Shown here piece after piece: positions 9,583 through 64,000 of a stretch of 64,000 nt of DNA. The stretch's first letter is position 1. Every line of letters begins with the position of its first letter. The position numbers and the translations under genes are program-made. The stretch is from Cytobacillus gottheilii (GTDB lineage Bacteria > Bacillota > Bacilli > Bacillales > Cytobacillaceae): contig NZ_LT800494.1 of NCBI RefSeq assembly GCF_900166665.1, positions 1,901,262 through 1,965,261 of the forward strand, given 5' to 3'. The notes beneath the pieces were generated by a model that was not told the DNA's origin, did no database searches, and saw only the letters and a list, made by a program, of their open reading frames with translations.

Positions 9583-10026
9583 ATGGTGTTTAAAAATAAA
9601 GATAGAGTTTATATGAATGGTAAAGGATATGGGACATTTATTTCTTATGGAATCAATAGCAATGATGAAGCTATTGTAAAATTCGATAGTCAAAACTCAG
9701 AAGAAAATGAATTTGGTTACAATGTAATTCCTTCAATTCTACTTAAACATGAAGAAAATGCCTATATTCAATTAAAATTATCTAAGATAACAGATGGAAT
9801 TACCGGAGAAGTTATTAATATTAAGAATATGACTGGCAGGTGGTTTAGTTTTCAGAATAAGGATTTAAAACTTGGCAAGAGTTTAATTTTTAAAATTGTT
9901 GATGAGACGTTTGGCTACTGTAAAGTTGGCACAATCTTATCGATTGAAAGCAAGGTTATTAGGAAAAGGGATTACATATTTGTTACTACTGAAGATAGAG
10001 TGTATCAATTATTAAAAAGACAATAA
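9583..10026 (+). CDS. Hypothetical beta-rich protein, 147 aa
   Basis: I chose the ATG after AGGTGGTG; an in-frame GTG lies inside that site. Residues 1-55 (KDRVYMNGKGYGTFISYG) look like an SH3-like barrel, and the second half repeats a beta-rich pattern (VGTILSIESKVIRKRDYIFV). No family is recognised. Confidence 0.65.
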   Translation: MVFKNKDRVYMNGKGYGTFISYGINSNDEAIVKFDSQNSEENEFGYNVIPSILLKHEENAYIQLKLSKITDGITGEVINIKNMTGRWFSFQNKDLKLGKSLIFKIVDETFGYCKVGTILSIESKVIRKRDYIFVTTEDRVYQLLKRQ

Positions 10027-19141: not shown

Positions 19142-19171
19142 AAAGTTATAAATTGGTGAAGGATGAAGAAC

Positions 19172-20317
19172 ATGTCAAAGCTTACATTGAAACAAATGAT
19201 GTTGAACGAGATCGAAGCTGCACCAAGAGGACTAGCTGAAGAATTGGCTAAGATTGCGGGATATTCAAGTGGTACAAACTTTACAAGAACCTTAAAAGAC
19301 CCAGACAAGGACATTGAGAAACTAGATGGATTTTTCAAAGTAGCTCTTCACCTTTTTCCTAATGAATATGAAGAGTTACTGAAGAACTTTGTTGATGAAA
19401 TAAACCCAAAAAGAATAACAGCTAGATTGTGTTTAGAGTATCTTACTTTGTATCATATGTATGAATTGAAAGAGGCACTTCTTAATAGAATGTTAACTTC
19501 TAATAGTAGAGACGTGATTGATTTCGCCAGTGTGTACCATGTACAGCATCTTTATGAAATGAAAAAACTAGATTTCTCAGATGCGATTTGTAAGCTGAAC
19601 TCATACTCCAATTCAAAACCAGAAGTTAAATCATTTGCTAAGATCTCTCAAATATATTGTTATTATGCAATTAGAGATATTACAATGTTAAAACTCCAAT
19701 TGGACGAGTTAGAGAGTGAGATAAGTAATATTAAAAATGCTTTTATTAGAAACTCATATATGGGAAGATTGTTTCGTATAAAGGTTGATATCAGTTTTCA
19801 TAGCGGAAACATTGGAGACCTATTGGAGCAAATATTTATTCTTGATAAAGCATTAGATCCTACTAAGTCCATGACATACCTCCAAATAGGTAACTCTTAC
19901 ATGTTAAAAAGCTTTGATAAAGCAATGGAGTTTTACAAAAAAGCTTTAGAGTGTAAAAACAATAAGACAGAACAACAGATTAAACAAAGCATAAATTTCA
20001 TTTCCTGTCTTTGGAATAAAGTTGACAATTTTTGTAGCGATGGAACAATGAGCAATGATTTATTTTACTATGCGAGAACCAACAACAAAGCAATGGCTGA
20101 AGATATATTAGATAATATTGATTTTGAGAAATTAAACAATCACCAAAAAGCGTTTAATCATTATTATCGAGGTATTCTTGAAAATAACAAGTATCATTTT
20201 TACAAATCTATAGAATTCTTTAACAAAGCTGGAGAAAAGTTTTACAAATTGATCCCAATAATGGAATTGAAAAAGCTAGGTGAAAATGAAGTTATTCTTG
20301 AAGCGTTGTCAGCATAA
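19172..20317 (+). CDS. aimR: AimR arbitrium receptor/regulator, 381 aa
   Basis: I chose the ATG 8 bp after AAGGA; an ATG nine bases upstream lies too close to it. From memory of the SPbeta protein (386 aa), segments align along the whole length: PKRITARLCLEYLTLYHMYE, NAFIRNSYMGRLFRIKV, YLQIGNSYMLKSFDKAMEFY and the end FYKSIEFFNKAGEKFYKLIP followed by MELKKLGENE. Residues 1-60 are the helix-turn-helix (APRGLAEELAKIAGYSSGTN) and the remainder are TPR-like repeats that bind the arbitrium peptide. In SPbeta and phi3T the peptide-free dimer activates aimX and favours lysis; bound peptide stops this and favours lysogeny. aimP follows 30 bp downstream. Confidence 0.93.
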   Translation: MSKLTLKQMMLNEIEAAPRGLAEELAKIAGYSSGTNFTRTLKDPDKDIEKLDGFFKVALHLFPNEYEELLKNFVDEINPKRITARLCLEYLTLYHMYELKEALLNRMLTSNSRDVIDFASVYHVQHLYEMKKLDFSDAICKLNSYSNSKPEVKSFAKISQIYCYYAIRDITMLKLQLDELESEISNIKNAFIRNSYMGRLFRIKVDISFHSGNIGDLLEQIFILDKALDPTKSMTYLQIGNSYMLKSFDKAMEFYKKALECKNNKTEQQIKQSINFISCLWNKVDNFCSDGTMSNDLFYYARTNNKAMAEDILDNIDFEKLNNHQKAFNHYYRGILENNKYHFYKSIEFFNKAGEKFYKLIPIMELKKLGENEVILEALSA

Positions 20318-20347
20318 GCTTAAAACTTGAAAGGAGGTGAAATACAA

Positions 20348-20503
20348 ATGAAGAAGCTAATTTTAAAATTAACCTTGGCTGCATCTCTACTTTTCGCAGG
20401 TGCAAGTGCAGTTTCAGCAGACGAAGGAAAACAATCTGCAGAAAATGAAGTTTATAGTACTTTTACTACTAAACAACTTGATCCGGGCGGCGGCGGAAGC
20501 TAA
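20348..20503 (+). CDS. aimP: AimP arbitrium pro-peptide, 51 aa
   Basis: A perfect SD (AAAGGAGGTGA) precedes the ATG. Residues 1-24 are a classic signal peptide: MKKLILK, a hydrophobic core LTLAASLLFAGA, and AVSA before the cleavage site. The pro-region leads to the C-terminal LDPGGGGS. By family logic the last six or so residues (PGGGGS or DPGGGGS) are the mature signal taken up by the oligopeptide permease. It lacks the RGA-type ending of the SPbeta and phi3T peptides. The glycine codons are GGC GGC GGC GGA, strikingly GC-rich for this AT-rich DNA. A hairpin terminator follows. Confidence 0.9.
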   Translation: MKKLILKLTLAASLLFAGASAVSADEGKQSAENEVYSTFTTKQLDPGGGGS

Positions 20504-20526: not shown

Positions 20527-20560
20527 ATGGACACTTGTTGCTAATTGCAACGGTGTCCAT
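20527..20560 (+). terminator. aimP terminator / aimX attenuator
   Basis: ATGGACAC-TT-GTTGC and GCAAC-G-GTGTCCAT form a 13-bp stem with a small bulge and a 5-nt loop, followed by TTTGTATTTT. In the arbitrium system readthrough beyond aimP into aimX is the regulated step, so this hairpin may be the control point. Confidence 0.75.
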
Positions 20561-20578: not shown

Positions 20579-20610
20579 AGTCCAATTTATAAAAATATAA
20601 AAATCGGAAC
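20579..20610. promoter_or_regulatory. 32-bp inverted repeat, copy 1, after aimP
   Basis: Left arm AGTCCAATTTAT and right arm AAAAATCGGAAC flank 8 bp. They match the two perfect copies at 24751 and 28581 in 10 of 12 and 11 of 12 positions, with identical spacing. It lies between the aimP terminator and the candidate aimX, where the AimR binding site is expected. AT-rich -10-like DNA (TATAAA) lies at its centre. Confidence 0.7.
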
Positions 20611-20632
20611 GAAACTGGGGAGGAAGATGGGA

Positions 20633-20821
20633 ATGAAAAAGCAAGCTTCAGCATTACAGCAATTAAAAATGGGATACTTTGTAGCAAGGATGGAGAGATT
20701 TGAGCGTGAATCAAATAAGTGTGTACATTGTTGGCAGGGAAATTGTGGCTGCAATACAAAATCAACTGTATCAGATAGTGCATTTATCAATTATGAAGGT
20801 AATGAATTACAATATGTATAA
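20633..20821 (+). CDS. Candidate AimX, 62 aa
   Basis: I chose the ATG 9 bp after GGGGAGG; the earlier frame runs through the aimP terminator. The product is basic at first (MKKQASALQQLKMGYFVARM), has a zinc-knuckle-like CVHCWQGNCGC, and a polar tail. It is the only gene between the aimP hairpin and a strong terminator, exactly the place of aimX in SPbeta and phi3T, where a short protein of about 50 residues inhibits lysogeny. The identity rests on position only; no sequence resemblance was seen. Confidence 0.6.
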   Translation: MKKQASALQQLKMGYFVARMERFERESNKCVHCWQGNCGCNTKSTVSDSAFINYEGNELQYV

Positions 20822-20825
20822 GATA

Positions 20826-20870
20826 AAGCGTAGGTGATTAGAGACAATCTAACGATACCTACGCTTTTTT
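20826..20870 (+). terminator. Intrinsic terminator after candidate aimX
   Basis: AAGCGTAGGT and ACCTACGCTT form a perfect 10-bp stem with a 21-nt loop, followed by TTTTTT. It closes the arbitrium unit. Confidence 0.85.
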
Positions 20871-20922
20871 ATTGTAAATAAATTGATTTTATTATTTACA
20901 GATTAGATAAATGTGGTAGAAT
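20870..20922 (+). promoter_or_regulatory. Promoter with upstream SPBRE
   Basis: SPBRE TATTGTAAATAAATTGA (20870-20886) ends 8 bp before TTTACA (20895); 16 bp later is TAGAAT (20917). It drives the small genes and the sigma factor that follow. Confidence 0.8.
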
Positions 20923-20962
20923 AGTAGTATAGAAATAAAGTATTGAAGGAGTGTGTCTCAGA

Positions 20963-21145
20963 ATGTCAAGTAAACTTGCTAACATCAATGAGCAACGCTA
21001 CAAGAATTACTATCAGGCTACTGGATCAGATAATTGCTGCATAGAGAAAATAAACTACATAGACATATTCCCAGTACAGCCCGATAAAGCAAAGGAGATG
21101 AGAAAAGGTTACATGAAGATGCTTTCAGATATACATAAAAAATAA
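20963..21145 (+). CDS. Hypothetical protein, 60 aa
   Basis: The ATG follows AAGGAGTG at about 11 bp; in-frame GTGs lie within the SD region. The product (MSSKLANINEQRYKNYYQAT, then NCCIEKINYIDIFP) is basic with a pair of Cys and ends in a Lys-rich helix. Family not recognised. It is the first gene of the unit that carries the sigma factor. Confidence 0.6.
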   Translation: MSSKLANINEQRYKNYYQATGSDNCCIEKINYIDIFPVQPDKAKEMRKGYMKMLSDIHKK

Positions 21146-21150
21146 ATTAA
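21134..21150 (+). repeat. SPBRE copy next to ribosome binding site
   Basis: CATAAAAAATAAATTAA contains the stop codon of the upstream gene and lies about 5 bp before AGGAGG. Confidence 0.5.
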
Positions 21151-21168
21151 TAATAGGAGGTGAAGAGG

Positions 21169-21345
21169 TTGGGATTGAAAGTTTACTCAATTGAAGGAAA
21201 ACTGTCAGTGCCGGATAATTTAACACATCAAGAAATGTTAAGTTTGTTTTATGATGCATTAAAAGAAAAGGGAATTCATTTTGCGGGAGCTACAAAAGAG
21301 GTTGGGCACGTACATAATGAATTAGATAGATATAGTTGCTTATGA
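21169..21345 (+). CDS. Hypothetical protein, 58 aa
   Basis: A TTG start lies 8 bp after AGGAGG. The product has a strand (LKVYSIEGKLSV) and a helix (THQEMLSLFYDALKEKGIHF) with a polar tail, an alpha/beta layout. No family is recognised. It lies between SPBRE copies just upstream of the sigma factor gene. Confidence 0.6.
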   Translation: MGLKVYSIEGKLSVPDNLTHQEMLSLFYDALKEKGIHFAGATKEVGHVHNELDRYSCL

Positions 21346-21357
21346 AAATAAATTATT
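21341..21357 (+). repeat. SPBRE copy next to ribosome binding site
   Basis: TATGAAAATAAATTATT contains the stop codon of the upstream gene and ends a few bases before GGGAG of the sigma factor gene. Confidence 0.5.
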
Positions 21358-21375
21358 ATAGGGAGATTATCTGAG

Positions 21376-21954
21376 ATGTATAAAGGGTTTAGCAACGAAG
21401 AATTAATTAAATTGTATAGAGAGAATCAAGATGAAAATATTAAAGATTACTTTTTTGGAGTTAATAAAAATTTAGCGTTCAGCATTTGTAATAAATACAT
21501 AAAGCGACATGATAAACTAAGAGAAGATGTGGAATCTGAAGCATTAGTGGGATTAGTAAAGGCATTTAATACTTTTAATTTAGATAAAGGATATAAATTT
21601 ACTACTTATGCCGGAATGGTCATTAGAAATGAAGTTTTAAAATTTTTACACCAAGTAAACAAAATCAACAAATTAAATACCTGCAGTCTATTTGCAAAAT
21701 TGAATTCTGACGATGAGTCTCTGATGATGATTGATTTAATTTCAACAGGGGAAATTGGGATAGAGGAACTAGTTATCTTAGATGAAGCTTCTGTAAATTT
21801 CTTAAGCAGAGCAACGGAAAGAGAAAGAGATATATTCATATTAACTTACTTTGAGGATGATCTAAGTCAGCGTAAGATAGCTGAAAGGCTGGGTGTTAGT
21901 CAAAGGACTGTATGCAAAACGTTAGGAAGAATAAATAAATTGCTAAGTGCGTGA
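21376..21954 (+). CDS. Phage RNA polymerase sigma factor, 192 aa
   Basis: The ATG follows AGGGAG. Residues about 10-85 are region 2: IKRHDKLREDVESEALVGLV, then NTFNLDKGYKFTTYAGMVIR, the core-binding and -10-binding helices. Residues about 135-190 are region 4 with a helix-turn-helix (ATERERDIFILTYFEDDLSQ and RKIAERLGVSQRTVCKT). It fits the sigma-70 family as in phage and sporulation-type factors. It would direct host RNA polymerase to a set of phage genes, possibly late genes outside this window. Its gene follows the arbitrium unit under an SPBRE promoter, so it should be off in the lysogen. Confidence 0.88.
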   Translation: MYKGFSNEELIKLYRENQDENIKDYFFGVNKNLAFSICNKYIKRHDKLREDVESEALVGLVKAFNTFNLDKGYKFTTYAGMVIRNEVLKFLHQVNKINKLNTCSLFAKLNSDDESLMMIDLISTGEIGIEELVILDEASVNFLSRATERERDIFILTYFEDDLSQRKIAERLGVSQRTVCKTLGRINKLLSA

Positions 21955-21995
21955 TTATATGAAGAAAAAATTCTATTTTATATGGAGGGGACAAA

Positions 21996-22718
21996 ATGAG
22001 AGAAAATGCATTTAAAGTGCTAGTCGGATCACATAATTACAATTTAAACACAGCCAATTCAGATAAGGATTATAAAATGTTCTTCTATCCATCATTTGAA
22101 GATTTGTATTCTGGAGAGAAGTATTCAAAAGCTACAACAGGAGAAACAGAAGATGTGGAATTACACGATATTAGAAAGCTGCCAGATATGTTATGGAAAA
22201 GCAATGTAAACTTTCTTGAAGTTTTATTTAGCAAAGAGGTAGAAGAGTACAGAGCTTATTTTAATTTATATAAAGAATTACATAGTAAACGTGAAGAAAT
22301 CGCCAGCATGAATCTGCCTTACTTGTATGATGCTTGTATGGGCATGTTCCATAAAAAGAAAAAAGAATTTGAGAGAGATATTGAGAAGAGTGTTGATTGG
22401 TCAAAGGTTTCGAAACATACAATGTCTGTAACTAGAATTGTTGATTTCTTACATAGATATGAAGCAAACAATTGGTCATTTGAGAATGCTATTTACTATA
22501 GTGAGAACGAACATATGAGAAATACTTTACTCGATATTAGGAATGGTAAATATGAGACTGAAACTGAGTTAAGAGTGTTTATTGATGGATCTGAAAGGTT
22601 ACTACAAGCAATTAAACCAGTGTATAAGAGCAAGCAAACCAATGAAGAGGTTAAAGAATGGATGTATAAAACAGTTAAGTGGGAAGTTGAAGAAAAGATT
22701 TTTACGGAATTACAATAA
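21996..22718 (+). CDS. RlaP-type nucleotidyltransferase, 240 aa
   Basis: The ATG follows ATGGAGGGG. Residues about 10-30 show the polymerase-beta nucleotidyltransferase signature VLVGSHNYNLNTANSDKDYK (G-S, then S-D-x-D), and the next conserved Asp-type residues (DVELHDIRK) follow at about 54. This matches the RlaP family, predicted nucleotidyltransferases linked to RNA repair. The C-terminal half is helical and may bind RNA or tRNA. A role in tRNA repair against host anticodon nucleases is inference. Confidence 0.75.
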   Translation: MRENAFKVLVGSHNYNLNTANSDKDYKMFFYPSFEDLYSGEKYSKATTGETEDVELHDIRKLPDMLWKSNVNFLEVLFSKEVEEYRAYFNLYKELHSKREEIASMNLPYLYDACMGMFHKKKKEFERDIEKSVDWSKVSKHTMSVTRIVDFLHRYEANNWSFENAIYYSENEHMRNTLLDIRNGKYETETELRVFIDGSERLLQAIKPVYKSKQTNEEVKEWMYKTVKWEVEEKIFTELQ

Positions 22719-22737
22719 AAATAAATGGAGGAAGTTA

Positions 22738-23511
22738 ATGAGTGAAATAATTGTAACTTATGAGAAAGATAGAAATGTTATTGTCAAAGGAGAAAGTTGG
22801 GTTTACACTGACAGTCTAAATCTGGCAGATGTTTTAGATGTTGAACATAAGGAGGTAATGAGAAAGATACGTCAAATACTGACTGATTATAAAATTGAGG
22901 AGGGTGGAGAATCTCCACCGTCATCAGACAACAGGGATTACATTAGGAAACATACTGATTTCACATATGGCATCTCTTATTACAAAAATAAACAAAATAA
23001 ATTACAGCCTTTTTATAAATTAACCAAAGACTTATTAATGCTTACGATTTTTGGATTTAATAAACAGAAAGCACAAGACATGCAGCTTACATATATAGCA
23101 AAATTTAATGAAATGGAAAAAGAGTTACACTATTGGAGGGCAAGATATTTAGGTATAATATCAAGAAATAAATTTACATTAGCAATTAAAGATTACATAG
23201 AAAATCCAACGACTAAAGTTTATGCTCAATATACAGATTTAGTTTATCAAACACTTTTTGGGTTAAGAGCTAGGCAAATTAGGAAAATGTATGGAATTAA
23301 GCCAAATGCAAATGTGAGACCTTTTTTAGAAGCTGAGAGTACAGAAGTGGTAGATGCATTAGAAAAAGAATTGCAGATGTTCTTATCATACGGACTAACC
23401 TTTGAGAAAATCGAACAGTTAACTCAAGAAAAATATAAAGAACCATATGAATTAAGGATGGATATGAAAAAAGTAAACAAGCATATAAGCAGACAAAAGA
23501 AAATAAAATGA
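22738..23511 (+). CDS. Rha-family antirepressor-like protein, 257 aa
   Basis: The ATG lies 6 bp after GGAGG; the longer frame starts inside the upstream gene. Residues about 10-125 fit the phage Rha domain: VTYEKDRNVIVKGESWVYTD, DVEHKEVMRKIRQIL, and the hallmark FYKLTKDLLMLTIFGFNKQK followed by YIAKFNEMEKEL. The C-terminal half is helical and basic. Rha proteins are DNA-binding phage regulators, often antirepressors whose expression interferes with lysogeny. Confidence 0.85.
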   Translation: MSEIIVTYEKDRNVIVKGESWVYTDSLNLADVLDVEHKEVMRKIRQILTDYKIEEGGESPPSSDNRDYIRKHTDFTYGISYYKNKQNKLQPFYKLTKDLLMLTIFGFNKQKAQDMQLTYIAKFNEMEKELHYWRARYLGIISRNKFTLAIKDYIENPTTKVYAQYTDLVYQTLFGLRARQIRKMYGIKPNANVRPFLEAESTEVVDALEKELQMFLSYGLTFEKIEQLTQEKYKEPYELRMDMKKVNKHISRQKKIK

Positions 23512-23544
23512 TCCTTTTAAGGGATTAAACTAGGAGGAAATAAA

Positions 23545-23931
23545 ATGGATTTAGAACAATTGCGTAACTGGTTTGCTTCTGAAGAAGGTAAACAATCAGT
23601 TGAAAAACTTATTGATGAATTAAAACTAGAAGAATCTGAAGCGATAAAGGCAGAGGAGAATAGCAAATTGACTTACCCAGATGGTCAAAAAGTTAAAAGA
23701 GGGGATTTGTTCATTGACACTGAGGCAAAAAGAAGATGTGAGAGTGATCCATCATCAGAGGTGTTCGGTTATTACAACTATGTATATCGTATAAATGAAG
23801 ATGAAACTGTGGATTTGTGCATTGATGGAAACTTTGCCCTTAAACTTAATAGCACACCGTTTAACTTTGACAATGCAGAGCTTATTGAAAGAGATGCAAA
23901 TCTATATAGTCCATTAGAGGAAATTATTTAA
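23545..23931 (+). CDS. Hypothetical protein, 128 aa
   Basis: The ATG follows AGGAGG. The N-terminal 50 residues are acidic and helical (LRNWFASEEGKQSVEKLIDE), followed by a beta-rich region (GQKVKRGDLFIDTEAKRRCE). Family not recognised; similar layouts occur among phage early proteins. Confidence 0.65.
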   Translation: MDLEQLRNWFASEEGKQSVEKLIDELKLEESEAIKAEENSKLTYPDGQKVKRGDLFIDTEAKRRCESDPSSEVFGYYNYVYRINEDETVDLCIDGNFALKLNSTPFNFDNAELIERDANLYSPLEEII

Positions 23932-23971
23932 ATAGAAAGCAGAATTTATAAGGAATTAGGAGGAAATATTG

Positions 23972-24232
23972 ATGAGTATGACAGTTAGATATGCAGTAAA
24001 AATGAAGAATGGTGAATATTTAAGGCAAGACTTTGATGAGCAGCGTATTGAAACAGTAAGATTATGGTCTGTAGAAAATGCTATTGATGCTGATTTGTTC
24101 AGATCAGAAAGTGAAGCGCAAAGATTAATCAAAGAAGTGTTAACTGGAAATACAAATTTGCTGGTATTGTACGATGACGAAAACCCACCCAATGAAGTTG
24201 TTAAATTGACAATAGGCTTTAAGATTGATTAA
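23972..24232 (+). CDS. Hypothetical protein, 86 aa
   Basis: The ATG follows TTAGGAGG. The layout is strand (TVRYAVKMKNGEYLRQDF), helix (SVENAIDADLFRSESEAQRL), strand, as in several small proteins in this window. No family is recognised. Confidence 0.65.
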   Translation: MSMTVRYAVKMKNGEYLRQDFDEQRIETVRLWSVENAIDADLFRSESEAQRLIKEVLTGNTNLLVLYDDENPPNEVVKLTIGFKID

Positions 24233-24243
24233 AAGAACACATT

Positions 24244-24260
24244 TATTGAAAATAAATTAC
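24244..24260 (+). repeat. SPBRE copy next to ribosome binding site
   Basis: TATTGAAAATAAATTAC, about 8 bp before AGGCGGTG. Confidence 0.65.
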
Positions 24261-24279
24261 ATATCAAGGCGGTGATTTA

Positions 24280-24474
24280 ATGAACATGATTGATAAAAAT
24301 AAAGTAGTTACTCACATGGAAAGACGTTTAGCAGCACTACAAGACCGTAGAATGCGTGACTTCTCAGGTGGAACACAATCGGATATCTTTGCAATTAGGG
24401 AGCTTGAATACTGGTTATCGTGCTTTAAACGAGGAGTTTATGATATGAAGCTATGGGAAAACGAGGGAATGTGA
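24280..24474 (+). CDS. Hypothetical protein, 64 aa
   Basis: The ATG follows AAGGCGGTG. The product is helical and basic (VTHMERRLAALQDRRMRDFS), with a Trp-containing end. Its stop codon abuts the start codon of the next gene, so translation is likely coupled. Confidence 0.65.
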   Translation: MNMIDKNKVVTHMERRLAALQDRRMRDFSGGTQSDIFAIRELEYWLSCFKRGVYDMKLWENEGM

Positions 24475-24669
24475 ATGAAATTAGATGAGTTATCAACCAA
24501 GGAACTGACAATATTACAAGATCTACTAAGTGAAGAAATAGAAACAATTAGAGAGTTAAATAGTAAATACAATTTACATAAAGGGATTATTGCTACTAGG
24601 GAAGAAAGAGTAAGATATTATGAATTAATTAAAGTAAAGATAAATAACGCGCTAGGGGTATACAAATAA
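24475..24669 (+). CDS. Hypothetical helical protein, 64 aa
   Basis: It begins at the ATG directly after the upstream stop; the upstream GAGGGAATG supplies the SD. The product is an amphipathic coil (LSTKELTILQDLLSEEIETI) consistent with a dimerising helix hairpin. No family is recognised. A terminator follows. Confidence 0.65.
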   Translation: MKLDELSTKELTILQDLLSEEIETIRELNSKYNLHKGIIATREERVRYYELIKVKINNALGVYK

Positions 24670-24693
24670 ATATACATAAAGCATGGACTTTTG

Positions 24694-24719
24694 AGATCTA
24701 CAACTTGTAGGTCTTTTTT
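24694..24719 (+). terminator. Intrinsic terminator
   Basis: AGATCTAC and GTAGGTCT (one G-U pair) with loop AACTT, followed by TTTTTT. Confidence 0.75.
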
Positions 24720-24750
24720 ATTTGTAAATTTTTCTTGACAATAGGCAAAT

Positions 24751-24782
24751 ATTCCAATTTTTCTATTGCTAAAAATCGGAAT
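24751..24782. promoter_or_regulatory. 32-bp inverted repeat, copy 2, before the recombinase/mrpR operon
   Basis: ATTCCAATTTTT, 8 bp, AAAAATCGGAAT. The arms are complementary except for one position. It overlaps the likely -35 region of the operon. Both arms are identical to copy 3 after mrpR. It is a likely operator. Confidence 0.75.
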
Positions 24783-24795
24783 GATATGGTAAGAT
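24766..24795 (+). promoter_or_regulatory. Candidate promoter of the recombinase/yopQ/mrpR operon
   Basis: TTGCTA, 18 bp, TAAGAT. The -35 box lies inside the 32-bp inverted repeat. A TTGACA at 24735 has no good -10 partner. An SPBRE lies just downstream. Confidence 0.45.
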
Positions 24796-24802
24796 TAATA
24801 CA

Positions 24803-24819
24803 TATTATAAATAAATTAA
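24803..24819 (+). repeat. SPBRE copy in the mrpR operon leader
   Basis: TATTATAAATAAATTAA, about 30 bp before the SD of the first gene of the operon. If it binds MrpR, the repressor would control its own operon. Confidence 0.65.
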
Positions 24820-24859
24820 AAATATAGATAGAGATAAAGAGACTATGGAGGAGATTATA

Positions 24860-25021
24860 ATGGATTTAGCTAAGTGGGATATTTACAATTGGGTAGAAAG
24901 AGCGTCTAGAACTGCAGAGATTAGAGAAATGGAAAAGAATTTGAATGAAATCAACAAGATCAGGTACTTACTGGAGAAGCGAATAAGCAAAAGAAGAGGA
25001 GGTTATACAAATGCAATCTAA
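24860..25021 (+). CDS. Small helical protein, first gene of the recombinase operon, 53 aa
   Basis: The ATG follows GGAGGAG. The product is a charged helix (WVERASRTAEIREMEKNLNE) with a basic end (LLEKRISKRRGGY). Its 3' end overlaps the recombinase gene by 11 bp, so translation is coupled. It holds the place of SPbeta yopO but is not recognisably similar. Confidence 0.65.
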   Translation: MDLAKWDIYNWVERASRTAEIREMEKNLNEINKIRYLLEKRISKRRGGYTNAI

Positions 25022-26084
25022 TGTAATTAAATTAGAAAATGAACATATGAAGTCGTTGGATATTATAAATCATTACTTTAGTCAATTAACCTCTTCTCAT
25101 CGAGACTTTGAAGGGGAAAGAACAGATAGAACTAAATGTGAATATGAATCGGATCTTAGACAATTTTTCTTATTGATGAGAAACAAACAAAAAGGTAAAG
25201 AGTTGGAGTTTTTGTATTTAGATGAACTAAGTATCCAGGAAGATGAATTTAAAGAGTATATAGAAACCCTACAAGCCATAAAGAAACCAGATGATACTTA
25301 TCTGTATACTAATAAAACGATAAATAGAAAAATCTCAGCACTAAAAAAGTATGTTAGATTTCTAAAAGATAAAAAGTACATTAAAGATGATGTTTCTTAC
25401 CTAATAGCAATTAAAGGAACAAAAGAAAGGTCGCTAAGTTACGGTGCTTTAGAAGCACATGAGGTCTTAAAGATGGCTGAACTGGCAAGACTAGAGACAC
25501 ATTATCCAAGAGAAAAGAGACTAATGCTGCTACTTTCATTCAAAACTGGATTAAGAAGAGATGAAATATTTAACTTAACTTGGGATTCATTTGTAGAAAG
25601 AGAAGATGGAGTAGAAATTCAGTTTGTAGGTAAAGGATATGAAGACTTTCAAATCAAAATATCCAAAGAGTTTTACCAAGAGATTAGGGAAACCTTAAAT
25701 GATAAAGAAGCTTTGTTTGAAATGGATAAAAAGACTGTAACAAATATGATGAATAAATTTACTAAGAAATTAGGTATTTCACCAAAGAGAAGAATAGTTT
25801 TCCATAGTGTAAGAAAAGCCTTTGGAAGCTGGATTTTTGAGACTACTGGAGATATCAATCAGGCTAGAAAAGCTTTAAGACATAAATCAATTGTAACTAC
25901 TCAACTATATTTGAATGCAAAAGACTTACAATTACACAATACTCTATTTGGTATTGAGAAATTAGATGAAGATTTATACAAGGAAACTGATCATGAAGTA
26001 CTACTAAGGGCAATTAGTGAATTACCTAAAAGTCATATACTCATGTTGAATTCCAAAATAAGTGAAATAAATAAATTAAATTAG
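25011..26084 (+). CDS. Tyrosine recombinase, YopP-like, 357 aa
   Basis: The ATG follows GAGGAGG. Residues about 25-120 are a SAM-like core-binding domain, and 140-320 the catalytic domain. The active-site set is present: Arg in TGLRRDEIFNLTW, Lys in GKG of the hairpin, HSVRKAFGSW (H-x-x-R), LRHKSIVTTQLYL with the second His and the nucleophilic Tyr. It therefore looks catalytically competent. SPbeta YopP lies at the same place next to YopQ and YopR. SPbeta integrates with a separate serine recombinase, so this enzyme may have a regulatory or resolution role rather than integration. Confidence 0.85.
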   Translation: MQSNVIKLENEHMKSLDIINHYFSQLTSSHRDFEGERTDRTKCEYESDLRQFFLLMRNKQKGKELEFLYLDELSIQEDEFKEYIETLQAIKKPDDTYLYTNKTINRKISALKKYVRFLKDKKYIKDDVSYLIAIKGTKERSLSYGALEAHEVLKMAELARLETHYPREKRLMLLLSFKTGLRRDEIFNLTWDSFVEREDGVEIQFVGKGYEDFQIKISKEFYQEIRETLNDKEALFEMDKKTVTNMMNKFTKKLGISPKRRIVFHSVRKAFGSWIFETTGDINQARKALRHKSIVTTQLYLNAKDLQLHNTLFGIEKLDEDLYKETDHEVLLRAISELPKSHILMLNSKISEINKLN

Positions 26085-26113
26085 TCCTTAATTGTTTACT
26101 TAGTACTAATATC

Positions 26114-26131
26114 TAATATAAAATAAATTAC
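26114..26131 (+). repeat. Degenerate SPBRE copy
   Basis: ATATAAAATAAATTAC-type copy, about 20 bp before the SD AGAGGTG of the yopQ-like gene. Confidence 0.4.
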
Positions 26132-26167
26132 AGGAGAACCTGTCTAAATAGAAGAGGTGTATATTTA

Positions 26168-27502
26168 TTGTTACAAGATAGAGAATTACTAGAACAGAAT
26201 TTAATTAAACCTACACTAGAGATTAAAAGAAAAAGAAAAGTTGTAAGAGAAATTAAAGATAATTTAGCAACTAGTCATGCAATTTACGATGGTACAGTTC
26301 AAGAATGGATTAATAATCCTGCTGAAGAATTGTCTGGTTTGGATGAAAGATTACTGTATTTATTTGCAGAACAAGTTTTCAATGAAACTAAGGACTTATC
26401 AGTAGATCCTGAAGAGTTTTTCACAGAGTATGAAATTAAAACAGCTAAACAGTACTCAGGAAAGATGTTTATTAAAGATGATTTGAAACTTCCAATTACA
26501 TTTGAACCACCTGTTATTGAGTATTCTCACAATGTTTGGACTATGAGAATTCATATTAAGTTATTGGTTGATATGCTAAAGTCTAAATTATTAAATTGGA
26601 ATCCAGAGTCTCAACGTGAAGCTACCTATAGAAGAGTCAATGGAGAAATGGTTGAAGAAGCAACTGTATATTTAGATAATGTTATTGAAATGAAAAATTT
26701 AATTAAAGTTAATAAATTAGAAATCACACAAATTATTCTCAATGCTTCTGCTGGTAGTGCTGATAATGGTGAAGAAGTAACATATAACAGTGATACTTAT
26801 GAGTTACAAGTAAACAAAGGTACAAAGCTAGATGTTGTAGATGGTTATCACAGAATATTAGCAGCAGCTAGAGCAATGGATGAGAAACCAAATATTGATA
26901 TGTATTTCGATTTAAAATTGCTTAACATGACTGTAGACAGAGCTGCTGCATACCTTGCTCAGATTTCTAAAGGTGAGAGAATTTCTGAAACTAAAAGAAA
27001 AATTATGAGTAAAGATACAGATGCAATCAAAGTAGTGGAAGAGTTAAATAGTAGATCAGAATTAGCAGGTAGGATTTCAAAGAAAGAAGGATTAACTCCA
27101 TCTATAGGAGAAATTGTTACTTATAATACCTTACTGAATTCTATAGAGAAAAACTTTGAATTTAAAAATAAAAAAGATATGTATGATGTTTCTGATTACC
27201 TAACTGAATTTTTTGATGTGTTTTTAAGCTATTATGAGGAAGAATTTAATGAGAAGTATCAAGAGACAAAGAAAGTATCATTAATTAATTCTAATTTTAT
27301 GTTTTCAGGATATGTTAGGTTAGCATCTAGAATGATGGAAGAAGAAATAGATTCTAGAGATGTACGGAAGTATATCAATAAGATTAACTTTAATAAAGAC
27401 AATCCAGAATGGAAACAAAGAGGAATTCTCGATAATAAAGGAAACTTAACTAGAGGAAGTGTAAAATTTATTGAGAATTATTTCGATGAGATAAATTTAT
27501 AA
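26168..27502 (+). CDS. YopQ-like protein with DGxHR motif, 444 aa
   Basis: A TTG start follows AGAGGTG. At about residue 225, VDGYHRILAAARAMDEKPNI is a variant of the DGQHR/ParB-like motif that binds nucleotide or DNA ends in ParB/DndB-type proteins. The segment before it (VNKLEITQIILNAS) fits the same fold. The rest is helical. It occupies the position of SPbeta yopQ between yopP and yopR. The role in SPbeta is not settled; the context implies a part in lysogeny control. Confidence 0.75.
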   Translation: MLQDRELLEQNLIKPTLEIKRKRKVVREIKDNLATSHAIYDGTVQEWINNPAEELSGLDERLLYLFAEQVFNETKDLSVDPEEFFTEYEIKTAKQYSGKMFIKDDLKLPITFEPPVIEYSHNVWTMRIHIKLLVDMLKSKLLNWNPESQREATYRRVNGEMVEEATVYLDNVIEMKNLIKVNKLEITQIILNASAGSADNGEEVTYNSDTYELQVNKGTKLDVVDGYHRILAAARAMDEKPNIDMYFDLKLLNMTVDRAAAYLAQISKGERISETKRKIMSKDTDAIKVVEELNSRSELAGRISKKEGLTPSIGEIVTYNTLLNSIEKNFEFKNKKDMYDVSDYLTEFFDVFLSYYEEEFNEKYQETKKVSLINSNFMFSGYVRLASRMMEEEIDSRDVRKYINKINFNKDNPEWKQRGILDNKGNLTRGSVKFIENYFDEINL

Positions 27503-27536
27503 TTGAATAACTAGGGAATTGAAGGGATTGTGAATC

Positions 27537-28496
27537 ATGGAATTTTATAATCAGACAGTTAAAGAGAGATACTTGAATTCAATTGAAAATGAGGATTCTA
27601 GAAATACTGTAAAATATACTTTTCAATACTCTAAAAATACAGAGATAATTCACGAAAAAGATTTGTATAATTTTAGCATGAACGAGATAACTGAAGTAAT
27701 GAAGAATGCCCCTAGTACGGAAAATACTTTAAAATTAACATTGTCTAATATGAGAGCGTATTTATCTTGGTGCATTAAAAATGGATATAGAAGCGATAAT
27801 ATTAATCCTTTAACAACTGTGCCAAATTCTTGGGCAGAAGAGTTTGTAGATAGAGTGAAAAAGACTCATTTCTCATTTGATGAAATTCAAACAATAATAG
27901 ATAATCTACGTAACGAAAGAGAGAAGGCAATTGTTCAATGCTGGTTTGAAGGTGTTGGGGGAAAACAGTTTAGCGAACTAATAAATTTAACTTACAACGA
28001 CATAGATTGGACAAATAATACATTAAGACTAACAAACGAGAATGGTGAAATTAGAGAAATTAAAGTATCTGAATTGTGCTTGCAAAGAATTCAGGAAGCA
28101 CATGATCAAACAGTTTACAAAATGTTAAATAGAGTTGGAAATGAGAGACCTATTGACCTTATACATTCCGATCACGTATTTAGACCAACTGCAACAAAAA
28201 GAAGCACTGGAGATTCTCTAGGCGTTTCCGCAATATATGCAGTAATTTTGCAAATTAAAGAAGATCAGTCTTTAGATATTTTTAGTTATAATTCAATTCG
28301 TCAGAGCGGTCAAATATATGAAGCTTATCAAGTGTATGATAAAAAAGGGAAAATAGTGGGCGAAGACTTAGATGCTATAGGGGAGAAATATCAAGCAGCT
28401 AAAAATTCATTTGGTAGTCCAAATAGAAATTTAATGAAGAGATATATAAATAGCAAAAACCTAAAAGAATTGTATAATGTGGATGTAGAAATTTAA
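27537..28496 (+). CDS. mrpR: MrpR (YopR)-like master repressor, 319 aa
   Basis: The ATG follows TTGAAGGG. It has the two-domain fold of tyrosine recombinases: core-binding residues 1-105 (LKLTLSNMRAYLSWCIKNGY), then a catalytic-like domain (FEGVGGKQFSELINLTYNDI). The first catalytic Arg is replaced (GK in place of LR) and the H-x-x-R His is Asn (YNSIRQSG), so it should not recombine DNA. SPbeta MrpR is likewise a recombinase-fold repressor of about 325 residues that binds SPBRE and holds the prophage silent. Position after YopP and YopQ homologues supports this. Confidence 0.82.
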   Translation: MEFYNQTVKERYLNSIENEDSRNTVKYTFQYSKNTEIIHEKDLYNFSMNEITEVMKNAPSTENTLKLTLSNMRAYLSWCIKNGYRSDNINPLTTVPNSWAEEFVDRVKKTHFSFDEIQTIIDNLRNEREKAIVQCWFEGVGGKQFSELINLTYNDIDWTNNTLRLTNENGEIREIKVSELCLQRIQEAHDQTVYKMLNRVGNERPIDLIHSDHVFRPTATKRSTGDSLGVSAIYAVILQIKEDQSLDIFSYNSIRQSGQIYEAYQVYDKKGKIVGEDLDAIGEKYQAAKNSFGSPNRNLMKRYINSKNLKELYNVDVEI

Positions 28497-28518
28497 CCCT
28501 GTATTTTAGCAGGGTTAA
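28493..28518 (+). terminator. Hairpin at the end of mrpR
   Basis: TTAACCCTG and CAGGGTTAA form a perfect 9-bp stem with an 8-nt loop that includes the stop codon. There is no clear T run, so termination may be partial. Confidence 0.55.
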
Positions 28519-28530
28519 GATTTACTTATA

Positions 28531-28547
28531 TATTAAAAATAAATTAA
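28531..28547 (+). repeat. SPBRE copy after mrpR
   Basis: TATTAAAAATAAATTAA lies between the mrpR hairpin and the 32-bp inverted repeat, in a 303-bp stretch with no plus-strand gene. Confidence 0.7.
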
Positions 28548-28580
28548 CTCACTAAAATAAGTTTGAAGAAGGGTTAATTC

Positions 28581-28612
28581 ATTCCAATTTTTCAAAAAAT
28601 AAAAATCGGAAT
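28581..28612. promoter_or_regulatory. 32-bp inverted repeat, copy 3, after mrpR
   Basis: ATTCCAATTTTT, 8 bp, AAAAATCGGAAT: the same arms and spacing as the copy before the operon, with a different centre. No gene starts next to it on the plus strand; the minus-strand Xre gene ends about 190 bp downstream. The rest of this stretch (to 28767) shows no further feature. Confidence 0.75.
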
Positions 28613-28767
28613 ATTTAATAGCATATTCACCATTTTGTCAATAATTATTTTTATAATGTGCAATGTTTCGACAAAACTAGACAAGGACAAAACTGTTTTT
28701 ATGTTGTAAAATGTATTTATCAGATAATTTTAATCATGTAAAAAAGTTCATTACTTACGAACCGAGA

Positions 28768-28798
28768 GGTAGGTGAAAGAACTTCACCCGTACCTACC
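28768..28798 (-). terminator. Hairpin after the minus-strand Xre gene
   Basis: GGTAGGT and ACCTACC pair around a nested GGTGAA/TTCACC hairpin, ending two bases from the stop codon of the minus-strand gene. It has no strong T run. Confidence 0.5.
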
Positions 28799-28799
28799 C

Positions 28800-29015
28800 T
28801 CAATCATTCCATTCGTATAGGTCTTCTATCCTACACTTCAATGTCCTAGATATAACTCTTGCTGTACTCAAACTCATGATATTTTTATTGTTTATGTAAG
28901 CTGATATCTGAGATTTGGCAATTCCCGTTTTAGAGATTAAGTCTGCTTGAGTCATATATCTAGAATTTAATAGATCTAAGAGTAGGCACTTTCCGACAGA
29001 GTATTCTGGTGGCAT
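28800..29015 (-). CDS. YopS-like Xre regulator, 71 aa, minus strand
   Basis: On the minus strand an ATG lies 10 bp after AAAGGAGG. Nearly the whole protein is one Xre helix-turn-helix: LLDLLNSRYMTQADLISKTG, IAKSQISAYINNKNIMSLST, then a short last helix ending CRIEDLYEWND. In SPbeta YopS is a small Xre protein directly after yopR. It is divergent from the next plus-strand gene and probably controls the shared 217-bp region, which holds repeated ACGAAC cores. Confidence 0.85.
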   Translation of the reverse strand: MPPEYSVGKCLLLDLLNSRYMTQADLISKTGIAKSQISAYINNKNIMSLSTARVISRTLKCRIEDLYEWND

Positions 29016-29072: not shown

Positions 29073-29153
29073 AACAAGAAATATTTTCTAACGATAATTC
29101 TTGTTAACGAACGTTATACAGTTTATAATAGAAATACGAACAAAGTACGAACA
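29073..29153. promoter_or_regulatory. Operator cluster between the Xre gene and the divergent gene
   Basis: AACAAGAA (29073) and TTCTTGTT (29098) form an inverted repeat whose right arm overlaps the plus-strand -35 box. TACGAACA occurs twice, at 29135 and 29146, exactly 11 bp apart, and a third ACGAAC core lies at 29107 within the spacer. These are likely sites for the divergent Xre repressor. Confidence 0.65.
29101..29129 (+). promoter_or_regulatory. Promoter of the 29233 gene
   Basis: TTGTTA, 17 bp, TATAAT. Unlike most promoters here it has no SPBRE but is surrounded by ACGAAC repeats, suggesting control by the YopS-like protein instead of MrpR. Confidence 0.75.
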
Positions 29154-29232
29154 TAAGTTCTCTTTAAGGAGGCGGATCATAAATAATATTAGGAGGTTGC
29201 TATATTATTAAACATAAAAAGGAGATTAATAG

Positions 29233-63057: not shown

Positions 63058-64000
63058 TTGAGATTAGAACTAGATACGGTACTACAATCAACAGACTTTT
63101 TAGTTCCAGAGAATCCTAACCGTTCAAACAGTGTGTTAAATGGTGACAGCAGCGGTATCTTAACTTGGAATGATATTGCTAAAGAGCTTGTTTATAAAAG
63201 ATACAAAGAAGCATTAGGTAACTTTTGGACACCTTTTGAAATCAACTTAGGATCAGATGTTAAGCAGTACAAAGACCTATCAGAAGAGGACAGAGAGCGG
63301 TTCAGAAAAGTAAATGCTTTAGTGGCTATTTTAGATTCAGTTCAGCCAGTATGGTTCAACTTAATGGGACAATACATTACTGATAGCTCTATACAACACT
63401 TACTTACAATCTTATCTCAGCAGGAAGTTGTACATAATCATTCATATTCCTATGTTTTGTCTACTCTAGAAGAGTATAAAAATCAAAATAAGGCATTTGA
63501 AATTGCAAGAACAGATGAAGTTGTATACTTTAGAAATAAATTAATATTTGATGTGTATCGAGATTTTAAAAAGCATCCTACTGTTAGAAACTTTATTAGA
63601 GGTATGATTGCTTCAATGCTATTGGAAGGAATTAATTTTTATTCTGCATTTGCTTATTTCTATAATCTTGCTAGAAATCAGAAGCTCGTTGCTACTTCAA
63701 CAATGATAGCGTATATCAATAGAGATGAGCAACTTCACACGAAAGTAGCTGCAGATATCTTAAATTTTATATTGGAAGATCAACCGCACTTACAAGACTA
63801 TGCCAAAGAGTTTGCTTTAGAGTTCTTCCCTCAAGTAGTAGATAAAGAGATTGAATGGTCAGAGTATATTCTTAAAGGCGAAGAAGATATTGATATGTTT
63901 GAAATGAAACGTTATATTCAGTATCGTGCAAACAAAGTATTGTCCCTATTGAATATGAAAGAAATTTACAAAGGAATTGAATCTAATCCTATGCCTTGGA
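63058..64000 (+). CDS. Class I ribonucleotide reductase small subunit, 3' truncated by window edge
   Basis: A TTG start lies 8 bp after AAGGAGG, two bases after the flavodoxin stop. I translated 314 codons without a stop. The diiron site is complete so far: Asp in ALVAILDSVQ, E-x-x-H-x-x-x-Y in QEVVHNHSYSY (including the tyrosyl-radical Tyr), Glu in LLEGINFYSAF, and E-x-x-H in NRDEQLHTKV. Family length is about 320-350, so only a short C-terminus is missing. It makes the radical used by the large subunit. Confidence 0.92.
   Translation, partial: MRLELDTVLQSTDFLVPENPNRSNSVLNGDSSGILTWNDIAKELVYKRYKEALGNFWTPFEINLGSDVKQYKDLSEEDRERFRKVNALVAILDSVQPVWFNLMGQYITDSSIQHLLTILSQQEVVHNHSYSYVLSTLEEYKNQNKAFEIARTDEVVYFRNKLIFDVYRDFKKHPTVRNFIRGMIASMLLEGINFYSAFAYFYNLARNQKLVATSTMIAYINRDEQLHTKVAADILNFILEDQPHLQDYAKEFALEFFPQVVDKEIEWSEYILKGEEDIDMFEMKRYIQYRANKVLSLLNMKEIYKGIESNPMPW

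What the first reader, a model, noticed from the sequence alone, without database searches (positions are those of the whole stretch)
20579..28612. A 32-bp inverted repeat occurs three times, linking the arbitrium unit to the mrpR operon
The element is two 12-bp arms, ATTCCAATTTTT and AAAAATCGGAAT, separated by exactly 8 bp. Copies at 24751 (before the recombinase/yopQ/mrpR operon) and 28581 (after mrpR) have identical arms. The copy at 20579 (between the aimP terminator and the candidate aimX) matches 10 of 12 and 11 of 12 positions with the same spacing. I saw no other full copy in 64 kb. The positions suit an operator for AimR or another switch protein that connects peptide signalling to expression of the master repressor. 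It differs from the widely spaced AimR site I remember for SPbeta.
Basis: partly seen in the sequence, partly recalled or inferred. Interest (0 to 1): 0.88.

Follow-up and report, generated by a model that had tools for sequence, protein, structure and literature searches.

The report
Arbitrium receptor sites on lysogeny switch
A short inverted DNA repeat found three times in this bacterial virus is most likely the landing site of AimR, the receptor of the viral "arbitrium" peptide signal, and one copy sits at the promoter of the virus's master repressor, which suggests a direct wire from viral communication to the decision to stay dormant.

Summary
The repeats are real and far beyond chance. 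Three diverged SPbeta-like prophages carry them three times, at the same places: after aimP, before yopP-yopQ-mrpR, after mrpR. A half-site profile built without the tested phage ranks exactly those three first in each of four phages (21-35 bits; next best 9.3). No such dyad was found in 13 of 13 MrpR loci without a detected AimR, or in 5 of 5 loci with a YopS-like protein and another AimR DNA-binding domain (DBD). One occurs beside an AimR of matching DBD in another bacterial family.

Copy 1 starts 18 nt after the aimP hairpin; the proven AimR antitermination sites of SPbeta and phi3T start 16 and 17 nt after theirs. Read as ATTCC-22-GGAAT, the dyad has the long AT-rich AimR architecture. Copy 2 encloses a -35 box of the mrpR-operon promoter, clearly in three relatives, weakly here. 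Best reading: AimR operators, antiterminating aimX at copy 1 and repressing mrpR at copy 2.

Binding is untested. One AimR phage (L059) lacks the repeat, AimR recognition residues vary, and seven similar dyads lie in genomes without an AimR-like DBD. New variant of a known kind.

The parts
20579..20610 (+). Copy 1: dyad (3 mismatches) between the aimP hairpin and the RBS of the aimX-like ORF; proposed AimR antitermination operator
24751..24782 (+). Copy 2: exact dyad before the yopP-yopQ-mrpR operon, enclosing a candidate -35 hexamer (TTGCTA, 24766-24771; -10 TAAGAT, 24790-24795); proposed AimR repressor operator
   Evidence: the promoter is clear in L052, L053, L057 (10 of 12) and weak here (8 of 12 plus TGn)
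28581..28612 (+). Copy 3: exact dyad between mrpR and the convergent yopS
20527..20560 (+). Hairpin after aimP, ending 18 nt before copy 1; proposed aimP terminator
   Evidence: hairpin chosen by eye; the strict terminator scan did not report it
19163..20317 (+). aimR, the cognate receptor
   Evidence: Pfam AimR PF22871 E 8.1e-54; PDB AimR chains, best E 1.1e-38
20327..20503 (+). aimP candidate (ORF start codon as listed; precursor ending ...LDPGGGGS)
   Evidence: position after aimR
20627..20821 (+). aimX-like ORF, 64 aa, CxxCW...CGC
   Evidence: aligned with homologues at the same place in L052, L053, L059
25011..26084 (+). yopP-like tyrosine recombinase, in the operon behind copy 2
   Evidence: Pfam PF00589 E 5.1e-18
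26168..27502 (+). yopQ-like gene (DndB family), same operon
   Evidence: Pfam PF14072 E 2.2e-9
27537..28496 (+). mrpR, master repressor homologue, same operon
   Evidence: Pfam PF22822 E 3.6e-20, PF22823 E 8.3e-17
28667..28676 (+). TTCGACAAAA, invariant in 7 aligned SPbeta-like loci; 70.5 bp from the centre of copy 3
28800..29015 (-). yopS-like small Xre protein, convergent with mrpR; rival binder
   Evidence: Pfam HTH_26 E 4.7e-12; homologue in SPbeta
24809..24818 (+). AAATAAATTA element just downstream of copy 2; possible counterpart of the MrpR site
   Evidence: function inferred

Best explanation
The inverted repeat is the DNA operator of this phage's AimR. Peptide-free AimR binds as a dimer to the outer boxes (ATTCC-22-GGAAT). 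At copy 1, right after the aimP hairpin, it acts as an antiterminator so that the aimX-like gene is expressed, as shown by experiment for phi3T and SPbeta. At copy 2 it covers the -35 region of the yopP-yopQ-mrpR promoter and lowers transcription of the master repressor. At copy 3 it acts on a conserved promoter-like element between mrpR and yopS. When AimP peptide accumulates, AimR leaves the sites, aimX falls, mrpR rises and lysogeny is favoured. Shown here: the sites, their conservation, their positions, their association with AimR. Inferred: binding, the sign of regulation at copies 2 and 3, peptide control.
For: Exactly three sites at homologous places in four phages; leave-one-phage-out profile 21.3-35.0 bits against at most 9.3 for the next best. 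13 of 13 MrpR loci without detected AimR lack it (best 12.5 bits). L171, another bacterial family, AimR with a DBD of the same group: dyad of 27.2 bits 224 bp upstream of aimR. Hairpin-to-operator gap 18/17/16/17 nt in the four phages, 16 in SPbeta, 17 in phi3T, 16 in each of four AimR-like loci; altering this distance abolished phi3T AimR function (PMC10769878 section 7). Those four AimR-like loci (DBD profile E 5e-19 to 4e-17) have GTTTCC-22-GGAAAC at that place. SPbeta AimR has a site between yopR and yopS, the place of copy 3 (PMC8612738 passage). Copy 2 has the -35 box inside the dyad at element positions 14, 15, 15 in three phages and 16 for the weaker window candidate.
Against: L059 has an AimR DBD of the same group and the same operon but no such dyad (best 12.7 bits); only a different weak dyad stands at the copy 1 place. 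AimR recognition-helix residues differ between the four phages although the arms are shared (by eye). Seven dyads of 22.9-35.5 bits lie in genomes without an AimR-like DBD (best E 0.21). The window's own copy 2 promoter is weak, with two competing candidates of 9 of 12. The aimP hairpin failed the strict terminator scan. L171 also has a small Xre-like ORF (9714-9989) beside aimP, so it does not fully separate AimR from a small Xre protein. No binding data.
Confidence: 0.7

Rival explanations
1. The dyad is the operator of the small Xre protein YopS (28800-29015), a Cro-like regulator that would repress the mrpR operon after DNA damage (LexA-like box at 29148).
For: YopS homologues accompany the dyad in all four phages (45-65% identical proteins in L052, L053, L057); yopS is next to copy 3; LexA-like box beside yopS in the window and L052; L171 has an Xre-like small ORF too.
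Against: SPbeta, phi3T and L059 have yopS but no such dyad (best 8.2, 6.2, 12.7 bits), and 5 of 5 loci with YopS-like proteins (40-52% identical) and another AimR DBD lack it. Copy 1 has the AimR terminator gap. L215 keeps one weaker dyad (20.6 bits) with no YopS found in the fetched 20 kb, though its AimR frame is cut to 178 aa.
Confidence: 0.12
2. The dyad is a tyrosine-recombinase core site (two 12-bp arms, 8-bp centre) used by YopP to flip or excise the yopP-yopQ-mrpR segment.
For: 12-8-12 geometry; two exact copies flank the operon; YopP is an integrase-family protein.
Against: The 8-bp centres differ between copies. 0 of 4 loci with YopP, YopQ and MrpR but no detected AimR (L013, L014, L054, L156) have it. 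Copy 1 is not beside the operon.
Confidence: 0.03
3. The dyad is the operator of MrpR itself (or of an unknown phage or host regulator).
For: It flanks the mrpR operon; autoregulation is plausible. Similar dyads in genomes without AimR show that another protein could use such a site.
Against: SPbeta MrpR binds SPBRE, a 15-bp motif (PMC10516654 passages), which as derived here does not resemble the arms. 13 of 13 MrpR loci without detected AimR lack the dyad. A host regulator would have to explain absence from AimR-less SPbeta-like loci of the same bacterial family (L054, L055, L056, L058).
Confidence: 0.12
4. The repeat works as an RNA hairpin.
For: Antisense-strand hairpins of -7.1, -10.4 and -10.9 kcal/mol for the three copies.
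Against: On the sense strand the three window copies have an A.C mismatch in the stem; z-scores 0.62, -0.57, -2.91. In 6 of 13 copies the position-6 pair is A.C, so pairing is not kept; the arms vary independently there, as in a DNA dyad.
Confidence: 0.03

Closest known systems
phi3T AimR site (aimP - terminator - AimR site - aimX; AimR as antiterminator; PMC10769878)
   Same: Copy 1: hairpin, 16-18 nt gap, long AT-rich dyad, small gene at once behind it. Core distance TTC-24-GAA against TTC-25-GAA.
   Different: Extended 12-bp arms ATTCCRATTTTT; three strong copies in the phage's lysogeny region; phi3T shows no such dyad before phi3T_92 or after phi3T_97. The aimX-like protein here is a different, cysteine-rich one.
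SPbeta AimR operators (ATCACT-25-AGTGAT; a further site between yopR and yopS; PMC6458997, PMC8612738)
   Same: Same positions as copies 1 and 3; hairpin gap 16 nt.
   Different: Different box and spacing; no AimR dyad of that kind reported at an mrpR promoter in the passages I saw.
SPBRE, the MrpR element of SPbeta (PMC10516654)
   Same: Repeated phage element read by a lysogeny regulator.
   Different: 15-bp motif at ten ChAP-seq peaks, CAAATAATATGTATA-like as derived; not a long dyad and unlike the arms.

Membership tests
AimR operator | Bound by AimR, released by its peptide | not testable with these tools
   needs gel shift or footprint
AimR operator | Lies between the aimP terminator and aimX | tested here: met
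   copy 1 in window, L052, L053; in L057 the place is met but no aimX-like cysteine protein follows
AimR operator | Fixed short distance after the terminator hairpin (16 nt SPbeta, 17 nt phi3T) | tested here: met
   18, 17, 16, 17 nt in the four phages (hairpins set by eye); not met by copies 2 and 3
AimR operator | Two inverted boxes about 25 bp apart with AT-rich spacer (published 6-25-6) | tested here: inconclusive
   ATTCC-22-GGAAT, or TTC-24-GAA; near but not equal; true box unknown
AimR operator | Cognate AimR encoded beside it | tested here: met
   window, L052, L053, L057, L171; not met for L062-L068 dyads
MrpR site (SPBRE) | 15-bp SPBRE-like sequence | tested here: not met
Tyrosine-recombinase core site | Two arms of about 11-13 bp with a 6-8 bp centre (recalled) | tested here: met
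Tyrosine-recombinase core site | Identical centres in recombining partners (recalled) | tested here: not met
   CTATTGCT, CAAAAAAT, AAAAATAT

The most novel reading that the evidence does not exclude
In one group of SPbeta-like phages AimR is wired directly to the master repressor: the same dimer antiterminates aimX at copy 1, represses the yopP-yopQ-mrpR promoter by covering its -35 box at copy 2, and acts on a conserved, possibly RNA-producing unit convergent with yopS at copy 3. Arbitrium would then reach lysogeny without needing an AimX-MazF relay.
Probability: 0.55. Interest if true: 0.76.

Novelty: new variant of a known kind. Interest (0 to 1): 0.64.

Why it matters
How AimR and MrpR are connected is called unclear for SPbeta (PMC10516654 passage), and in phi3T the route runs through AimX, phi3T_93 and MazEF (PMC10769878 passages). 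An AimR operator on the mrpR-operon promoter would be the shortest possible route and can be tested with one gel shift and one reporter. The hairpin-to-operator gap of 16-18 nt, shared by two proven and eight predicted sites, also gives a simple rule for finding AimR operators in other phages.

Tried and rejected
Tyrosine-recombinase site: considered first because of the 12-8-12 geometry; dropped because the centres differ and YopP loci without detected AimR lack the dyad. MrpR element: dropped (SPBRE differs; 0 of 13 loci). RNA hairpin: dropped. Megablast of 11.5 kb against phages: no match. Viral-contig scan with MrpR: no relative; exact-pattern scan of viral contigs: 0. Viral-contig scan with the AimR alignment: two loci, of which L214 carries an AimR 100% identical to that of L052 and is not counted again. 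The pooled dyad-spacing histogram over 52 loci downstream of AimR has its highest count at 22 (28 against 5.8 expected), but terminators and homologous loci dominate it and many other spacings exceed the control too, so I do not use it. First extraction of AimR frames ignored strand and was redone. An automatic hairpin finder missed or misplaced several imperfect hairpins, so hairpins were set by eye; an end could be off by one or two bases. Plasmid collection: no match to one solitary-dyad region. Pfam on nine proteins near solitary dyads and one near the fourth copy: replication-type or HTH domains or nothing, no AimR. No structure prediction was run, since it would not decide binding specificity. 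Genome-contig scan: 16 stretches in 84,980 genomes, four of them named Neobacillus, Mesobacillus or Bacillus sp., the rest scattered and probably chance. Literature absence rests on searches in one open-access library; none of the four papers listed by one search holds the phrase "mrpR promoter".

Rows dropped or limits: 33 loci were scored for comparison; the 24 called controls (12.7 bits or less) exclude L171, L215 and the seven solitary-dyad loci L062-L068, which scored 20.6 or more. L069 and L070 (one search hits) were not scored; their matches lie inside longer ORFs. G005, G018, G101, G126 and G162 (one search hits) were not fetched at length. "Without detected AimR" means tblastn at E 0.001 in stretches of 13-27 kb; for the six family genomes behind L054, L055, L056, L058, L060, L061 the AimR family search of whole genomes also found none, and the genomes behind L154, L155, L157, L159 are not among the AimR matches, but the genome behind L156 has an AimR on another contig, and the rest of phages E3 and Perkons was not read.
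Full report
OBSERVATION. The element is as described. Two copies match exactly and the third has three mismatches; shuffles give none. Over spacers 0-30 the only other dyad at 20 of 24 or better that is not a shifted register is a weak one at 63446 with spacer 20. In the whole genome there is one more place at up to three mismatches, 43.7 kb upstream of the window, and the reversed control pattern finds none.

SURROUNDINGS. Pfam identifies AimR (PF22871, E 8.1e-54), a tyrosine recombinase (yopP), a DndB-family protein (yopQ), MrpR (PF22822, PF22823) and two Xre-type proteins. SPbeta and phi3T have the same order aimR-aimP-...-yopP-yopQ-mrpR-yopS; here several further ORFs separate the aimX-like ORF from yopP.

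RELATIVES. MrpR was sought in 193 genomes of the bacterial family (18 with a match at E 0.001 or better) and the dyad in the same 193 (17 with a match at two mismatches or fewer, against 7 with the reversed control). Three diverged prophages (L052, L053, L057; MrpR 31-36% identical) carry three copies each, in the same three gaps: after aimP, before yopP, and after mrpR facing yopS. A symmetric half-site profile built from the other phages and run on each held-out phage ranked the three sites first in all four (21.3-35.0 bits); the next best was 9.3 bits. With spacers 4-12 other than 8, at most one hit of 14 bits or more per spacer appears, at spacers 7 and 9.

WHICH PROTEIN. Of 13 loci with MrpR but no detected AimR (four of them with YopP and YopQ), none has such a dyad (best 12.5 bits), so MrpR, YopP and YopQ are poor candidates. 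Five of five loci with a YopS-like protein (40-52% identical) and an AimR whose DBD differs by eye lack it too. Conversely L171, from another bacterial family, has an AimR with a DBD of the same group and one dyad of 27.2 bits 224 bp upstream of aimR; tblastn found no YopS or MrpR in its 36 kb, but a 91-aa Xre-like ORF lies beside aimP. A profile of six DBDs matched 16 of 397 genomes of the order. In four of these (L207, L209, L210, L211) an AimR-like gene, with no aimP visible by eye, is followed by a hairpin and the dyad GTTTCC-22-GGAAAC. In L215 the aimR frame is cut to 178 aa and one weaker dyad (20.6 bits) remains after mrpR.

THE HAIRPIN GAP. In phi3T and SPbeta AimR is an antiterminator: its site follows the aimP terminator, and in the phi3T reporter lengthening that distance by 69 bp or shortening it by 8 abolished function (PMC10769878, section 7 read in full). 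I measured the distance from hairpin end to operator start, with hairpins set by eye: window 18, L052 17, L053 16, L057 17, SPbeta 16, phi3T 17, and 16 in each of the four AimR-like loci; L059, with a different weak dyad, 20. This is the strongest single argument that copy 1 is an AimR site. No plus-strand promoter-like match lies between the hairpin and the aimX-like ORF. The strict terminator scan, however, did not report the aimP hairpin. Copies 2 and 3 do not have this gap.

GEOMETRY. Counting only the outer boxes the site is ATTCC-22-GGAAT, and the TTC and GAA cores are 24 bp apart; in phi3T (AAGTTC-25-GAACAT) they are 25 bp apart. SPbeta AimR binds spacers of 23-28 bp with similar affinity and loses binding sharply once 2 bp or more are removed (PMC6458997 passages). 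Which bases are the true box here is unknown.

COPY 2. In L052, L053 and L057 a promoter with 10 of 12 consensus matches has its -35 hexamer inside the dyad (element positions 14, 15, 15) and its -10 just outside the right arm. The window has a weaker candidate there (TTGCTA-18-TAAGAT with TGn, 8 of 12) and two competitors of 9 of 12. A protein on copy 2 would block the first. Repression of the master-repressor operon by peptide-free AimR is the natural reading and has the right sign: no signal, less MrpR, lysis. This step is inference. phi3T shows no AimR-like dyad before its operon.

COPY 3. SPbeta AimR is reported to bind a site between yopR and yopS (PMC8612738 passage). Here copy 3 lies upstream of TTCGACAAAA, invariant in all seven SPbeta-like loci aligned. 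The distance from the dyad centre to it is 70.5, 80.5, 81.5 and 70.5 bp in window, L052, L053 and L057: two classes about one helical turn apart. This hints at action from a fixed face of the helix, but four cases are few.

AGAINST. L059 has a DBD of the same group, yet no such dyad. Recognition-helix residues differ between the four phages more than the arms do. Seven dyads of 22.9-35.5 bits lie in loci L062-L068 of the same bacterial family, on contigs from 35 kb to 6.7 Mb, at least one beside a plasmid-type replication gene (L063), in genomes without an AimR-like DBD (best E 0.21); some other protein may use a very similar site. In L062 and L066 the dyad ends 9 bp before a TTTACA hexamer. 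The fourth genomic copy scores 30.4 bits but lies in a longer predicted hairpin.

LITERATURE. Seen: PMC10516654 abstract and passages; PMC8612738 passages; PMC6458997 passages; PMC9232636 passages; PMC8270828 passages; PMC10769878 passages and section 7 in full; the others in search listings only. In searches I found no report of an AimR site at the mrpR-operon promoter; preprints and most subscription papers are not covered.

VERDICT. AimR operators: about 0.75-0.8. Repression of the mrpR operon through copy 2: about 0.55. A new variant of a known kind: another AimR box type, used three times, one copy apparently wired to the master repressor.

Noticed in passing
window, 33 places on the + strand (for example 19093, 24809, 28537): AAATAAATTA occurs 33 times on the + strand and 0 on the - strand of the window; counts +/- are 0/6 in L007, 0/7 in L008, 14/2 in L009, and 3/0 in about 94 kb of SPbeta. 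Many copies lie just before ribosome-binding sites, as SPBRE does before SPbeta yopM; possibly this phage's MrpR element or a phage promoter element.
   Followed up: partly
window 28667-28812; L052, L053, L057, L059, SPbeta (L012:12333), phi3T (L216:8902): TTCGACAAAA, single-copy in the window, followed by a -10-like sequence and hairpin-rich DNA up to the 3' end of yopS; conserved in seven SPbeta-like loci. It may make a small RNA convergent with yopS.
   Followed up: partly
window 20627-20821; L052, L053, L059: Small protein with CxxCW...CGC after copy 1, conserved in four phages, unlike phi3T AimX; L057 has a different ORF there. A candidate alternative AimX.
   Followed up: partly
L007:7514-7545 (G000:C4:1857513-1857544): Fourth copy in the genome (30.4 bits), between minus-strand ORFs, upstream of a 67-aa ORF and a DUF2204-type nucleotidyltransferase-like gene; part of a longer hairpin.
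   Followed up: partly
L062-L068 (one search names Neobacillus cucumis, N. dielmonensis and Mesobacillus foraminis for matching contigs): Solitary dyads of 22.9-35.5 bits without AimR; in L062 and L066 they end 9 bp before TTTACA of a promoter-like sequence. Binder unknown.
   Followed up: partly
window 29148-29161; L052:16291: LexA-like boxes CGAACATAAGTTCT and CGAACATTTGTTCC beside yopS; SPbeta yopS is also listed with an SOS box (PMC8270828 passage).
   Followed up: partly
L181 (G197:C7), L182 (G307:C1): Seven AimR-like tblastn matches in tandem within about 10 kb in each of two genomes.
   Followed up: no
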